From Paracoccaceae bacterium (GTDB lineage: Bacteria > Pseudomonadota > Alphaproteobacteria > Rhodobacterales > Rhodobacteraceae): a stretch of DNA of 64,000 nt. The notes beneath the pieces were generated by a model. The model worked only from the letters and a program-made list of their open reading frames with translations. It was not told where the DNA came from and ran no database searches. The stretch is from the NCBI GenBank assembly GCA_020622085.1, contig JAHRYM010000001.1:681117-745116 (forward strand), written 5' to 3'. This document shows, piece by piece, positions 1,871 to 14,872 of the stretch; within the stretch, counting starts at the first letter, position 1, and every line of letters begins with the position of its first letter. The translations under genes and the position numbers were made by a program.

Positions 1871-3097
1871 ATGCCCGAAGATCGGATCAACAGCTACATG
1901 GCCGGCCCGGACGAGAACGGGCGCTTTGGCATCTTCGGCGGGCGCTTCGTGTCCGAAACGCTGATGCCGCTGATCCTGGATCTTGAGGCCGAATACGAAC
2001 ACGCCAAGACCGACCCGACCTTCTGGGCGGAAATGGACGACCTCTGGACGCATTATGTCGGCCGCCCCTCGCCGCTTTACCATGCCGAACGGCTGAGCGA
2101 GCACTTGGGCGGCGCCAGGATCTACATGAAGCGCGACGAGCTGAACCACACCGGCGCGCACAAGATCAACAACGTGCTGGGACAGATCATCCTTGCCCGC
2201 CGCATGGGCAAGACCCGGATCATCGCCGAAACCGGCGCGGGGCAGCACGGCGTGGCCACCGCCACCGTCTGTGCCAAGTTCGGGCTGAAATGCATCGTCT
2301 ACATGGGCGCGCATGACGTTGAACGTCAGGCGCCGAACGTCTTCCGCATGCGGCTTCTCGGGGCCGATGTGGTTCCCGTCACCTCGGGGCGTGGCACGCT
2401 GAAGGACGCGATGAACGACGCGCTGCGCGATTGGGTCACCAACGTGCGCGACACCTTCTATTGCATCGGCACGGTCGCGGGGCCGCATCCCTATCCGGCG
2501 ATGGTCCGCGACTTCCAGTCGATCATCGGCAAGGAGGTCCGCACCCAGATCATGGACCGCGAGGGCAGGCTTCCCGATACGCTCGTTGCTGCCATCGGTG
2601 GTGGTTCGAACGCAATGGGGCTGTTCTTCCCCTTCCTTGATGACAAGGACGTGCGGATCATCGGCGTCGAGGCCGGGGGCAAGGGCGTCGACGACCGGAT
2701 GGAGCATTGCGCCAGCCTGACCGGCGGGCGTCCGGGCGTTCTGCATGGCAACCGGACCTATCTGTTGCAGGATGCCGACGGACAGATCCTCGAGGGCTTC
2801 TCGATTTCGGCCGGGCTGGATTATCCGGGCATCGGGCCGGAACATTCCTGGCTGCATGACGTGGGCCGCGCCGAATACGTCTCGATCACCGACAAGGAGG
2901 CGCTTGAGGCGTTCCAGCTGTCTTGCGCGCTGGAAGGCATCATCCCCGCGCTGGAACCGTGCCATGCGCTGGCCCATGTGATGAAGATCGCACCAGGCCT
3001 GCCCAAGGACCACCTGATCGTCATGAACATGTGCGGGCGCGGCGACAAGGACATCTTCACCGTCGCCAAGCACCTTGGCGTGGACGTCAGGGCCTGA
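1871..3097 (+). CDS. trpB: Tryptophan synthase beta chain
   Basis: A 408-residue PLP enzyme that condenses indole and serine to tryptophan. The PLP lysine lies in HTGAHKIN (Lys98), the catalytic Glu in AETGAGQHG, and the phosphate-binding GGGSN loop at residues 243-247. The sequence is complete and of normal length. An AGGAG ribosome site lies just before the ATG. A strong terminator follows 55 bases after the stop, so trpA must be elsewhere or expressed separately. Confidence 0.97.
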
Positions 3098-3152
3098 CGA
3101 TTCGCCCCCTGTGATGGGCGGAACTTCCTAAACCTTCGGCCTAAGACCCTGA

Positions 3153-3178
3153 ACCCCGCGCCTGTCGCGGGGTTTTTT
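3153..3178 (+). terminator. Rho-independent terminator after trpB
   Basis: The stem accccgcg / cgcggggt has a short cctgt loop and runs into six T. It separates the trp genes from the downstream accessory unit. Confidence 0.9.
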
Positions 3179-3226
3179 GCTCAGGGCGAAGACAGGCGGC
3201 GCGCCTTGCCTGCCGGGGCGAGCCAT

Positions 3227-3279
3227 CTAAACCATGGTTTAGGGCCATTGGCACGGGGTTTAGTGCGGCGCGATAAACC
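3227..3279 (+). promoter_or_regulatory. Palindromic TAAACC/GGTTTA operator cluster
   Basis: A perfect 16-base palindrome CTAAACCATGGTTTAG lies at 3227-3242. It is followed by a second inverted pair, GGTTTA (3257-3262) and TAAACC (3274-3279), separated by 11 bases. A further lone TAAACC lies at 3129-3134. These sites sit about 150-200 bases before the first gene of the unit that encodes a LuxR-type regulator. Many LuxR/FixJ-type helix-turn-helix proteins bind short palindromes, so autoregulation is a reasonable inference. The rest of the 326-base gap between trpB and the next gene holds the trpB terminator and no recognisable gene. Confidence 0.5.
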
Positions 3280-3424
3280 TCTGCGGCATGGCGCAGCGGT
3301 GCAATCGGCATCTAGCTGGCGGTATCCGGTTTCACACCACTCACCCGGATCATGCACACTGCCCATGGCCGCTTCACACCCGGCAGTCATGGGCAGCCCG
3401 ATGAACAGCAATGGGAACGAGCTT

Positions 3425-3916
3425 ATGAAAAAGACCCTCTTTCTGACGACGGCCCTGATCTTTTCGGGCCACATGGCCATTTCCGCGACCGTCGCCGAGC
3501 AGGTTGTCGAGAAGCTGAAGGCGGATGGTTTCGAAAACATCGAAGTCGCCCAGCGTGGCGAGACCGTGAAGGTCGAAGGCGTTCGGCAAGATCTGAAAGT
3601 CGAGGCGGTCTATGACACCACCACCGGAGAGAAGCTGAAGGAAGCGATCGGCCGGCCCGGCGACGAAGACAAGATTTCGGACGACGACGGCAATGATGAC
3701 GGAAACAAGGTCTCGGAAGATGACGGAACCGATGACGGAGAGGTAATCCTCGACGACGACGGGACTGACGACCAGGGCAAGACCAACGACGACGGCCATG
3801 ACGATGATGGCGGCGACGACAACGGGGATGATCACGGCGGTGATGGCGGCGATCACGCAGGCGATGGCGGCGGTGATGGCGGCGATCACGGCGGTGATGG
3901 CGGCGGCGACGACTGA
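3425..3916 (+). CDS. Secreted Asp/Gly-rich protein with PepSY-like N-terminal domain
   Basis: A 163-residue protein. Residues 1-20 form a clear signal peptide (MKKTLFLTTALIF, cleavage near AISA). Residues 21-75 resemble a small PepSY-like fold (a GF-x-x-I-x-V strand, then a D-x-x-TGE turn). Residues 79-163 are low-complexity Asp, Gly, Asn and His repeats (DDDG, DDGN, GDGGDH), a strongly acidic tail that could bind cations such as calcium; that is inference. The second gene downstream encodes a shorter relative. The ATG chosen gives a normal signal peptide; the frame stays open upstream only as non-coding sequence. Function is unknown. Confidence 0.75.
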   Translation: MKKTLFLTTALIFSGHMAISATVAEQVVEKLKADGFENIEVAQRGETVKVEGVRQDLKVEAVYDTTTGEKLKEAIGRPGDEDKISDDDGNDDGNKVSEDDGTDDGEVILDDDGTDDQGKTNDDGHDDDGGDDNGDDHGGDGGDHAGDGGGDGGDHGGDGGGDD

Positions 3917-3942
3917 ATACTGTGCACCGGCGACGTGACTTT

Positions 3943-3972
3943 GCCGATCCGCCTTCGGGCGGGTCGGCTTTT
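3943..3972 (+). terminator. Terminator with TTCG tetraloop between the two acidic-protein genes
   Basis: An 11-base-pair stem (GCCGATCCGCC / GGCGGGTCGGC, one G-T wobble) is capped by a TTCG tetraloop and followed by TTTT. It is a textbook intrinsic terminator. It should end most transcripts of the first acidic-protein gene and leave only part of them to read into the second gene and the regulator. Confidence 0.85.
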
Positions 3973-4032
3973 GCTTGCGGCTGCGGGATAGCCGCGCGAC
4001 AGTGTGGATGCGAAGGCGGGAAGGGCGCGAGG

Positions 4033-4392
4033 ATGCGGGTTCGGAGTTTCTCCATGGCGCTGGCGGTGCTTCTTGCCTGCACCGGACCCATCCAGGCCGG
4101 CGTGGACATCGATGCCCTGACGGAAGGGCTCGGGTCGCAGGGCTTTGATGACATCAAGGTGTTTCGCACCCTTCTCGGGCGCACGCAGATTATCGCCGAC
4201 GGACCGGCCGGGCACCGCGAAATCGTGCTTGACCCACGCACCGGCCAAATTCTGCGCGATATTTTCCGCGACGATGAGGATAGAGGAAAGGGTGAGGGCG
4301 CCCGGTCCGGTTCGGGCGCAGGGGATGATGGCGACCATGACGACGACCATGATGGCGGCGAGAAGGGCGGCGGCGGTGGCGATGACGGCTAG
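4033..4392 (+). CDS. Secreted PepSY-like protein with Asp/Gly-rich tail (paralogue)
   Basis: A 119-residue protein with a signal peptide (residues 1-22, MRVRSFSMALAVLL, cleavage after IQA). Residues 23-75 follow the same pattern as the preceding secreted protein: GF-D-D-I-K-V, then LDPRTGQILRDI. The tail (about 78-119) is rich in Asp, Gly and His. The two genes therefore look like an old duplication. The LuxR-type gene begins only 2 bases after its stop codon, so these two are surely co-transcribed. I know no characterised relative; sensing of an envelope or cation signal for the regulator is speculation based on context. Confidence 0.72.
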   Translation: MRVRSFSMALAVLLACTGPIQAGVDIDALTEGLGSQGFDDIKVFRTLLGRTQIIADGPAGHREIVLDPRTGQILRDIFRDDEDRGKGEGARSGSGAGDDGDHDDDHDGGEKGGGGGDDG

Positions 4393-4394
4393 CA

Positions 4395-4946
4395 ATGCCA
4401 CCTGCGCGGGGTTCGGGATGGCCGCTCGTGCGTAGCTGGGTCTTCCTTACGGCAATCCTGCTCGTTCAGGCGCTCTGCGCGTTCTTCTTCGTTTCCGACA
4501 TCATCCTCGGGATCCTCGGGATCTATGTATCGCCGCTGTCCTGGCAGCAGCGCGAATACCTTGAAATCGGCGCCGCGATCGGCCTGCTTCTGGGGTTGTT
4601 TCTTGGCGGCGTCGCCATCTATCGCACGACACGCGATCGTCGCATCGCCGAAGAAAAGCTGCGGCGCGCCTCGGGTGCCTTCATGGAACTTCTCGAGGAA
4701 CGGTTTGCCGACTGGGGGCTGACGGCGGCCGAACGCGATGTGGCGCTGTTTGCCATCAAGGGGCTGAACACGCAGGAAATCGCGGTCCTGCGATCGACCT
4801 CGGAGGGGACGGTCAAGGCGCAGACCAACGCCATCTATCGCAAGGCCGGCGTCACCGGGCGCCCCCAGCTTCTGAGCCTGTTCATCGAGGATCTGGTTGA
4901 CGGCCAGTTTCAGCGCCACGCGCCGCCGGTCGCCAAGGCATCCTGA
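4395..4946 (+). CDS. Membrane-anchored LuxR-type transcriptional regulator
   Basis: A 183-residue protein with two predicted membrane helices (about 14-36 and 57-77), a charged linker (79-105) and a C-terminal LuxR/GerE helix-turn-helix (about 107-166, LTAAERDVALFAIKGLNTQE then SEGTVKAQTNAIYRKAG). There is no receiver or autoinducer domain, so it resembles a one-component regulator that works from the membrane. It overlaps in transcription with the upstream secreted-protein gene (2-base gap) and meets the next, opposite-strand gene with no gap at 4946/4947. Its target may be the palindrome cluster near 3.23 kb. Confidence 0.82.
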   Translation: MPPARGSGWPLVRSWVFLTAILLVQALCAFFFVSDIILGILGIYVSPLSWQQREYLEIGAAIGLLLGLFLGGVAIYRTTRDRRIAEEKLRRASGAFMELLEERFADWGLTAAERDVALFAIKGLNTQEIAVLRSTSEGTVKAQTNAIYRKAGVTGRPQLLSLFIEDLVDGQFQRHAPPVAKAS

Positions 4947-5330
4947 TCAGTCGCCCCGGCAGTCCGGGTCGCAGGCGCGCAGGATTTCCAGCGGCACGAT
5001 TTCCAGCGCGCGCTGGTGGGTTGATCGCAGGTGGACCTGCGGGGCGGCGCCTTCCTCATGCGCCTGCAGGAAGCGCCCGGCGCAAAGGCACCAGCGGTCA
5101 CCGGGTCTGAGCCCCGGAAAGCGCAGGTCGGGGCGCGGTGTCGACAGGTCATTGCCGAGGTATTTCGACAACGCCAGAAACTCGGCCGTCAGGGTGACAC
5201 AGACGGTATGGCTGCCCTGATCCTCGGCGCAGGTGTTGCAGTGGCCGTCGCGGAACCACCCTGTCACCGGCGCGGTCGAACAGGGTTCAAGCGCGGTTCC
5301 AAGGACGTTGATCGAAGGCAGGCGCTGCAT
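4947..5330 (-). CDS. DUF2237 family protein
   Basis: A 127-residue protein matching the DUF2237 pattern closely: NVLGTALEPC, TGWFRDG, CNTCAEDQGSHTVC, LALSKYLGNDLSTP and FPGLRPGDRWCLC. The conserved cysteines and the GDRWCLC motif are intact. The family is widespread in proteobacteria and fungi but has no assigned function. A GGAG site lies before the ATG. The stop codon directly abuts the stop of the LuxR-type gene on the other strand. Confidence 0.88.
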   Translation of the reverse strand: MQRLPSINVLGTALEPCSTAPVTGWFRDGHCNTCAEDQGSHTVCVTLTAEFLALSKYLGNDLSTPRPDLRFPGLRPGDRWCLCAGRFLQAHEEGAAPQVHLRSTHQRALEIVPLEILRACDPDCRGD

Positions 5331-14242: not shown

Positions 14243-14872
14243 TCAACCGCCCGGCTTGGGGTTCTGGCCGGGGGCGATTGCCGATTGCGGAGTCGCGGTG
14301 GCGGAATGCCCGGTGGCAGGATTCTGCTGTCCGAATGCGGCATCGATCCTTGCTTCGAGCCTTGCCAGAACCATCTGCAGGTGCAGATCCCGCAATGCAT
14401 CGATCTTTTCGTGCAGGCGCAAGATTTCCAGTTCGGCCTTGAGGTTCACCTCGTAGTCGTTTGCGGCGGCCTGACGGTCTTTCTCGGCCTGGCGGTTCTG
14501 CGACATCATGATGACCGGCGCCTGGAAGGCCGCAAGCATCGACAGGATCAGGTTCAGCAGAATGAAAGGGTAGGGGTCCGGCACCGGATCGCGCAGGATG
14601 AAGACGGTGTTGATCAACACCCATCCGACGATCAGCGCGAAAAAGAGGATGATGAAGGTCCAGGAACCGCCGAAGGCCGCGACCCGGTCGGCGATCCTTT
14701 GGCCGAAGGTGGCTTCGGTCGTCCAGCTATCGGCCAGGTCGCGCGAGATGGCGTGCCGCTTGGCAATTCCTTCAAGGACGCGGCGCTCGCCTTCGTCCAT
14801 CTCGTCGTAGACGAGACCCAGCAATTCTTCAGCGATTGCCTGGATGTTGCTCCGGGAATTGTGGTTGTCCAT
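14243..14872 (-). CDS. DUF1003 membrane protein
   Basis: A 209-residue protein with two central membrane helices (about 70-92 and 104-125). FGGSWTFIILFFALIVGWV, DPYPFILLNLILSMLAAFQAP and MMSQNRQAEKDR are the DUF1003 signature; a charged helical region and a Pro/Gly-rich end follow. The family is of unknown function. The ATG follows a GGG-rich ribosome site. It lies between betA and the exporter gene, all on the minus strand. Confidence 0.88.
   Translation of the reverse strand: MDNHNSRSNIQAIAEELLGLVYDEMDEGERRVLEGIAKRHAISRDLADSWTTEATFGQRIADRVAAFGGSWTFIILFFALIVGWVLINTVFILRDPVPDPYPFILLNLILSMLAAFQAPVIMMSQNRQAEKDRQAAANDYEVNLKAELEILRLHEKIDALRDLHLQMVLARLEARIDAAFGQQNPATGHSATATPQSAIAPGQNPKPGG

What the first reader, a model, noticed from the sequence alone, without database searches (positions are those of the whole stretch)
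3227..4946. Membrane-anchored LuxR regulator with two secreted acidic PepSY-like proteins and its own palindromes
Seen: two adjacent genes encode secreted proteins with the same small N-terminal fold and Asp/Gly/His-rich tails; the next gene, 2 bases later, encodes a two-helix membrane protein ending in a LuxR helix-turn-helix. A perfect 16-base palindrome (CTAAACCATGGTTTAG) and a second inverted pair of the same half-sites stand before the unit. Inference: a one-component envelope-sensing circuit in which cation-binding secreted partners tune a membrane-bound regulator. I know no described system of this make-up.
Basis: partly seen in the sequence, partly recalled or inferred. Interest (0 to 1): 0.63.

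Follow-up and report, generated by a model that had tools for sequence, protein, structure and literature searches.

The report
Membrane LuxR switch with acidic partners
Three neighbouring genes, two for acidic secreted proteins and one for a membrane-tethered gene switch, travel together through a large family of bacteria with a conserved DNA site in front of them, and they look like a kinase-free version of a signalling module recently described in the cholera bacterium.

Summary
Among the 80 closest regulator orthologues fetched, 79 have a PepSY-like secreted gene directly before the regulator and 60 have two or more. The two form paralogue classes in fixed order (59 of 60), mostly with acidic tails. 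The 16-bp palindrome alone is not remarkable (about 2.9 perfect ones expected per window). But an operator of about 70 bp built around it is conserved: 58 of 77 upstream regions beat every control. Its core occurs in 120 of 162 genomes with a strong orthologue and 18 of 157 with none. New: a GC-rich hairpin follows gene 1 in 41 of 61 units (1.7 in shuffles); one genome has an EF-hand protein in place of the PepSY proteins. Best reading: an autoregulated one-component circuit whose periplasmic PepSY partner controls a membrane LuxR protein, a kinase-less analogue of DbfQRS (PMC12714742). Operator binding, partner contact and cation sensing are inferred. New variant of a known kind; my searches of the open-licence library found no paper on it.

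The parts
3227..3242 (.). Perfect palindrome CTAAACC-AT-GGTTTAG, core of the conserved operator
   Evidence: left arm recovered by EM without being in the seed; core TAAACYNNRGTTTA tracks the regulator across genomes
3257..3263 (-). Third half-site GGTTTAG, 21 bp after the second
3274..3279 (+). Fourth half-site TAAACC, inverted relative to the third
   Evidence: one base closer than in the consensus
3425..3916 (+). Gene 1: secreted PepSY-like protein, upstream class, Asp/Gly-rich tail
   Evidence: not recognised in 19 of 79 orthologous loci that have a PepSY gene, some of them contig-cut
3943..3968 (+). GC-rich hairpin followed by TTTTGCTT, between genes 1 and 2 (attenuator or 3'-end stabiliser)
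   Evidence: position conserved in relatives
4033..4392 (+). Gene 2: secreted PepSY-like protein, downstream (core) class, acidic tail
4395..4946 (+). Gene 3: membrane-anchored regulator, two helices plus GerE/LuxR-type HTH (residues about 109-173)

Best explanation
The unit is an autoregulated one-component signalling circuit. Gene 3 makes a membrane hairpin: helix 11-41, a short loop (about residues 42-50, taken to face the periplasm), then one long helix 50-107 that runs from the membrane into a NarL/GerE-type DNA-binding domain. A dimer of it binds the palindrome 3227-3242, and probably a second dimer binds the half-sites at 3257 and 3274, to control its own unit. The sensor-side partner is gene 2, a periplasmic PepSY protein that holds the regulator in one state, most likely by contacting the loop and the outer ends of the two helices. 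A change in the periplasm, most likely free divalent cations or envelope state acting on the acidic tails, alters that contact and so transcription. Gene 1, made in excess because a hairpin follows it, is a second acidic PepSY protein, a competitor or the main product. Shown: co-conservation, gene order, operator conservation, hairpin. Inferred: membrane topology, HTH-operator pairing, partner binding, cation or envelope signal, excess of gene 1, sign of regulation.
For: 79 of 80 loci have a PepSY-like gene directly before the regulator, median gap 36 bp; 59 of 60 two-PepSY loci keep the class order. In 19 of 19 single-PepSY loci it is the gene 2 class, which is also the more conserved one (0.555 vs 0.394 mean identity of mature columns). 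Operator core present in 120 of 162 genomes with a strong orthologue and 18 of 157 with none; of the 36 genomes for which searches printed both places, 30 have them 300-2500 bp apart in the right order. Core found once at 0 mismatches in its own genome, as expected for local autoregulation. The HTH is of NarL/GerE type. Q25, P47, W50, E54 and E57 are invariant in 37 of 37 orthologues aligned and lie in or near the hairpin. [quoted passage not shown] in P. aeruginosa the PepSY protein encoded next to the sensor is predicted to bind it and the one further off is not (PMC12714742, abstract and found passages). Cation hints: EF-hand protein at the same place in one genome; tails with median charge -39 and -22.
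Against: No binding, expression or ligand data; no complex was predicted. The palindrome alone is a chance-level object. 42 of 162 genomes with a strong orthologue lack the exact core. The EM score was trained on the regions it scores, and the class models on the sequences they sort. No canonical EF loop occurs in the 141 PepSY proteins scanned; acidic tails may have a structural role only. 11 of 79 downstream-class and 2 of 60 upstream-class tails are under 20% acidic. The own-genome paralogue's operon has no exact core.
Confidence: 0.55

Rival explanations
1. The PepSY proteins are outputs only: the regulator senses something itself (membrane state or a ligand of its hairpin) and switches on acidic secreted proteins that coat, buffer or bind cations; they do not act on the regulator.
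For: Gene 1 is followed by a hairpin that should favour its expression over the rest; the gene 1 class can be lost; RTX and EF-hand genes behind some off-locus operators would be further outputs.
Against: The gene 2 class is the one kept in the single-PepSY loci and its domain is the more conserved. The paralogue and several relatives outside the family keep a PepSY gene in the operon even with a cytochrome gene in between. The loop between the helices is short, leaving little room for a ligand site of its own.
Confidence: 0.25
2. PepSY as protease guard: gene 2 inhibits a periplasmic protease; when inhibition is relieved, the regulator is clipped in the membrane and its HTH is released (regulated proteolysis).
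For: PepSY domains are described as peptidase regulators (Yeats et al. 2004, seen only as cited); the regulator is membrane-tethered with the HTH at the free end.
Against: None of the three genes is a protease. The HTH is joined to the membrane by one continuous predicted helix. DbfQ acts by direct binding.
Confidence: 0.1
3. The regulator belongs to a redox or respiratory circuit: its relatives follow PepSY-cytochrome b561 or DUF1924 and diheme cytochromes, and the acidic PepSY proteins sense or carry metal for periplasmic electron transfer.
For: Cytochrome b561 before the own-genome paralogue, before relatives outside the family (L231, L232, L234, L235, L237, L238) and within it (L156, L220, L243); DUF1924 and diheme cytochrome genes before it in L239-L241.
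Against: None of the three genes is a cytochrome, and in 79 orthologous loci the PepSY gene ends at most 363 bp (median 36) before the regulator, which leaves little room for a cytochrome gene between them. I did not search those loci for cytochrome genes elsewhere.
Confidence: 0.12

Closest known systems
DbfQRS of Vibrio cholerae and dbfQRS-like modules, including the PA2658/PA2659-BqsS locus of Pseudomonas aeruginosa (PMC12714742; abstract and found passages read)
   Same: Small periplasmic PepSY protein(s) encoded directly before a signalling protein, sometimes two of them; DbfQ binds the sensor's periplasmic domain and sets its output
   Different: There the receiver is a histidine kinase plus response regulator. 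Here a single membrane-anchored LuxR-type protein takes both roles; the tails are strongly acidic, an operator is conserved and a hairpin follows gene 1
LIC13292 family transcriptional regulator (NCBIfam NF047608)
   Same: Closest NCBIfam model to gene 3 (E 1.9e-15)
   Different: 57.4 bits against a cut-off of 200; the match covers only residues 93-168
Membrane-bound LuxR-type regulators of Gordonibacter and Eggerthella (PMC11585353; two passages read)
   Same: LuxR-type regulator on the membrane, next to its target genes
   Different: Co-localised with molybdopterin oxidoreductases and linked to their substrates; no PepSY partner in the passages read
ToxR/ToxS and TcpP/TcpH type membrane-anchored transcription factors with small partners (recalled, from no call)
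   Same: Logic of a membrane-tethered DNA-binding protein modulated by a small partner encoded next to it
   Different: As recalled: winged HTH at the N-terminus and a periplasmic domain; here a C-terminal GerE HTH, two helices and only a short loop
[quoted passage not shown] seen only as described in review PMC8963506, passages)
   Same: PepSY protein with a negatively charged face that binds metal
   Different: Single-pass membrane protein with a tandem of PepSY domains; no LuxR partner in the passage

Membership tests
LuxR/GerE-type DNA-binding domain | Pfam GerE above gathering score | tested here: met
   PF00196 28 bits vs 23.5, residues 109-161; best fold matches StyR, GerE, VpsT, NarL, none below E 0.001
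Quorum-sensing LuxR | Autoinducer-binding domain | tested here: not met
   No such Pfam match at E 1; the N-terminal part is two helices
Response regulator / two-component system | Receiver domain, and a kinase next to it | tested here: not met
   No Response_reg match; the gene before the unit is a PALP-family enzyme, read as trpB, the one after it DUF2237
LIC13292 family (NF047608) | Score above the NCBIfam cut-off | tested here: not met
   57.4 vs 200 bits
PepSY_2 (PF13670) | Pfam gathering score | tested here: not met
   Genes 1 and 2 score 16 and 16.6 vs 24.3; the PepSY proteins of the paralogous operon and of L232, L234, L235, L237, L156 do pass
PepSY-like fold | One helix packed on a four-stranded sheet, related to solved PepSY structures | tested here: inconclusive
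   Topology as expected, but Foldseek has no hit below E 0.001 and the YpeB and YpmB entries reach only Z 4.8 and 4.5 among unrelated rows
DbfQRS-like module | Periplasmic PepSY protein encoded next to the signalling protein | tested here: met
   79 of 80 loci, PepSY by the orthologue profile, not by the Pfam cut-off
DbfQRS-like module | Histidine kinase and response regulator | tested here: not met
   Absent; a single membrane LuxR protein instead
DbfQRS-like module | Direct binding of the PepSY protein to the sensor | not testable with these tools
   No complex prediction or wet assay available
EF-hand or RTX calcium-binding protein | Canonical EF loop or RTX nonapeptides in genes 1 and 2 | tested here: not met
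   No EF loop by regular expression in the 141 PepSY proteins scanned; no EF-hand or HemolysinCabind match in the window genes

The most novel reading that the evidence does not exclude
A split one-component system for periplasmic divalent cations: a short membrane LuxR protein with almost no sensor of its own borrows an exchangeable periplasmic sensor subunit with a polyacidic tail (PepSY in nearly all orthologous loci seen, EF-hand in one genome). Occupancy of that subunit by calcium or another cation sets transcription of the sensor itself and, in some species, of RTX and EF-hand proteins. The same regulator family with other partners would serve cytochrome b561 and metal-efflux genes across Proteobacteria.
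Probability: 0.28. Interest if true: 0.75.

Novelty: new variant of a known kind. Interest (0 to 1): 0.6.

Why it matters
If right, the PepSY-partner principle just described for a two-component system also drives a one-component system, so the partner and not the kinase would be the constant part. A regulator of this family is in 237 of 394 sampled genomes of the bacterial family and a strong orthologue in 162 of 394. Its operator is defined to the base and occurs once in the window's genome, which makes it a clean promoter for asking what PepSY proteins sense; the DbfQ paper calls the exact function of the PepSY motif unclear. The EF-hand protein standing in for PepSY in one genome gives a direct way to test whether the signal is a cation.

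Tried and rejected
Palindrome as such: not significant by itself. Palindrome with a 3-base spacer: one two-mismatch match elsewhere in the genome against 6 for the reversed control.

Wide regulon in the own genome: no support. There is one exact core; one more with 1 mismatch (2 matches in all against 3 for the control), which lies between two divergent genes that I read by eye as flagellar (locus L116); and at 2 mismatches 30 matches in all against 69 for the control.

Calcium regulon across species: left as suggestive. RTX or EF-hand genes stand behind 5 of 45 off-locus operator cores, against 0 of 29 anagram-palindrome control sites (Fisher p 0.15), 25 of 5113 random positions in fetched stretches and 0 of 1999 in the 80 loci outside the unit. 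The 45 are the fetched places whose stretch shows no LuxR or PepSY gene, not all that exist, and include sites inside genes. The four sites before RTX genes do not reach the full-operator threshold, and the one before the EF-hand gene (26.2 bits) falls just short of it.

EF loops in the acidic tails: none. Sigma-70 promoter scan 3080-5000: none, so the sign of regulation cannot be read from promoter position. Fold searches: no hit below E 0.001 for either model. DUF2237 as a constant downstream neighbour: only 15 of 73 loci. Class labels g1/g2 were picked by the worse E-value (a bug); replace them. Two of the 19 single-PepSY loci (L104, L112) showed a second PepSY-like gene. Locus L212 was first read as a third operator-bearing PepSY-cytochrome operon; the gene between was not identified, so it is not counted.

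Literature (open-licence library only): PepSY with LuxR and Rhodobacter; PepSY domain with LuxR family, transmembrane, operon and autoregulation; PepSY domain with LuxR and Alphaproteobacteria; PepSY with cytochrome b561 and regulator: 0 papers each. Membrane-bound LuxR and LIC13292 terms: one paper. PepSY with periplasm, two-component system and calcium: 10 papers, passages of three read. led to the DbfQ paper; one search gave nothing relevant.

Full report
Anatomy. Behind a gene read as trpB (1871-3097; PALP family) lie gene 1 (3425-3916), gene 2 (4033-4392) and gene 3 (4395-4946), all on +; a DUF2237 gene follows on the other strand (4947-5330). Genes 1 and 2 have a hydrophobic start, a small domain and an acidic tail. 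Pfam PepSY_2 is hit weakly by both (E 0.013 and 0.0079, below the gathering score) and GerE clearly by gene 3. AlphaFold2 on a 32-sequence alignment gives gene 2 a helix and four strands between residues 26 and 79 (blocks 31-80 at pLDDT 93-96) and a low-confidence tail. On a 37-sequence alignment gene 3 is a helix 11-41, a continuous helix 50-107 and an HTH domain 111-173 (mean pLDDT 87.3), matching StyR, GerE and NarL among the best, none below E 0.001.

Co-conservation. The regulator's family is found in 237 of 394 genomes of the bacterial family at E 1e-12 or better (393 genera). Of 429 relatives in the named-genome collection the best 80 were kept, so what follows describes the closest orthologues. 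79 of 80 have at least one PepSY-like gene within 1.7 kb upstream and 60 have two or more; the one without starts at the edge of its contig. The gap to the regulator is 36 bp at the median, 363 at most. Upstream and downstream copies form two classes: in 59 of 60 two-PepSY loci each copy scores best with the model of its own position, and one locus (L098, with an extra PepSY gene further up) is reversed (the models were built from the same sequences). The single-PepSY loci have the downstream class in 19 of 19, 16 of them with 1.7 kb or more of upstream sequence held; an earlier, buggy pass saw a second PepSY-like gene in two of them. The downstream class is the more conserved (0.555 against 0.394 mean identity over 54 mature columns). 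Tails: 58 of 60 upstream and 68 of 79 downstream copies are at least 20% acidic, median charge -39 and -22. A trpB-like gene lies upstream in 57 of 66 loci with enough sequence.

Operator. Exact half-sites CTAAACC/GGTTTAG number 54 in 40 of the 80 loci within 2.6 kb upstream of the regulator (189 kb in all) and 7 in the other 406 kb of these loci. An EM model seeded with three half-sites but without the left arm of the palindrome recovered that arm on its own: TAAACY-NN-RGTTTA, a third half-site 21 bp on and a fourth, inverted one about 38-39 bp on, then CAATGG, about 70 bp in all. 58 of 77 regions (76 loci and the window; four loci had too little upstream DNA) score above the best of both controls, reverse strand and downstream DNA; the model was trained on the regions it scores, which favours them. 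A test free of that is the core pattern against whole genomes: present in 154 of 394, in 120 of 162 with a strong orthologue (printed exponent -50 or lower, that is E under 1e-49) and in 18 of 157 without a match at 1e-12. Of 36 genomes where searches printed both places, 30 have them 300-2500 bp apart in the right order; two of the other six lie far apart on one contig and four on different contigs. In the window's genome it occurs once at 0 mismatches. The 7-2-7 shape of the palindrome is that of NarL-type sites (recalled, from no call).

Hairpin. Between genes 1 and 2 the window has an 11-pair hairpin followed by TTTTGCTT (3943-3968). A stem of 8 or more pairs with 7 or more G-C follows gene 1 in 41 of 61 units (60 loci and the window), against 1.7 in shuffles; after gene 2 it is 8 of 80 (shuffles 2.1) and after gene 3 it is 0 of 80 (shuffles 3.3). 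With at least 3 T in 8 bases also required it is 26 of 61 against 0.2; under the strict terminator rule it is 8 of 61 against 0.2. The eight stems printed differ in sequence, apart from the window and its near relative L035. Inference: gene 1 is made in excess of the regulator, by partial termination or by 3'-end protection.

Partner swap and wider family. In genome G063 (locus L213) the same place (trpB-like gene, operator core, LuxR protein, DUF2237) holds a single protein with a signal-like start, EF-hand-like loops and a poly-Asp tail in place of the PepSY proteins (EF-hand_6 E 2.1e-5, 24.3 bits against a cut-off of 25). In G048 an operator core stands before a protein with four EF-hands. 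RTX genes follow operator cores in four further genomes; the statistics are suggestive only. The window's genome has a paralogue of the regulator in an operon PepSY - cytochrome b561 - LuxR protein, without the exact core, though similar operons in two other genomes have it (L156, L220). In a class-wide sample 30 of 385 genomes, four of them of the window's family, have a relative at E 1e-8 or better, several only in the HTH part. Outside the family it follows cytochrome b561 genes in six loci read (PepSY_2 confirmed in L232, L234, L235, L237) and DUF1924 plus diheme cytochrome genes in three (L239-L241). In a phylum-wide sample 37 of 398 have it at E 1e-15 or better. Of ten such loci read, one (L320) lies divergent to a gene fragment of CusA/CzcA type (ACR_tran 354.8 bits; the gene is cut by the stretch).

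Mechanism. DbfQ, a periplasmic PepSY protein of V. [quoted passage not shown] In P. aeruginosa the PepSY protein encoded next to BqsS is predicted to bind it and the other is not (PMC12714742, abstract and found passages). The conservation pattern here, with gene 2 next to the regulator the kept and more conserved one, fits the same logic with a one-component receiver. Q25, P47, W50, E54 and E57, invariant in 37 of 37 aligned orthologues, mark the hairpin and loop as the likely contact or cation site. What triggers it is not known; cations are favoured by the tails, the EF-hand swap and the metal-binding PepSY precedent UipA (described in PMC8963506, passages). Outer-membrane perturbation, which activates the DbfRS pathway, is the main alternative.

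Verdict. Real, widespread and not found described in the searches listed under Tried and rejected. It works like DbfQRS but is not a member, because it lacks kinase and response regulator.

Noticed in passing
G000:C1:1735530-1736000 (locus L002 1420-3214, outside the window): Paralogous operon in the same genome: PepSY, cytochrome b561, then a second membrane LuxR protein (40% identical to gene 3).
   Followed up: partly
window 3128-3134: A further CTAAACC half-site about 100 bp before the palindrome; a few relatives also have extra upstream half-sites.
   Followed up: no
L152 2466-2611 (genome G302): A strong full-length operator match (33.7 bits) stands between a histidine kinase gene and an OmpR-type response regulator gene, hinting at cross-wiring with a two-component system.
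   Followed up: partly
L116 1479-1562 (own genome, C2:1054121): The only one-mismatch operator core of the own genome lies between two divergent genes read by eye as flagellar; at this mismatch level chance gives as many.
   Followed up: partly
L230 941-3056 (genome G294): Two units face each other: PepSY-LuxR and, convergent, LuxR with a protein that bears the same TLLGRTRI motif but no acidic tail (no Pfam hit).
   Followed up: partly
L320 3-2853 (genome G1065): A more distant relative of the regulator lies divergent to a CusA/CzcA-type RND efflux gene, suggesting a metal link for the wider family.
   Followed up: partly
window 14606-14621: The only other perfect 16-bp palindrome of the window, GGTGTTGATCAACACC.
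   Followed up: no
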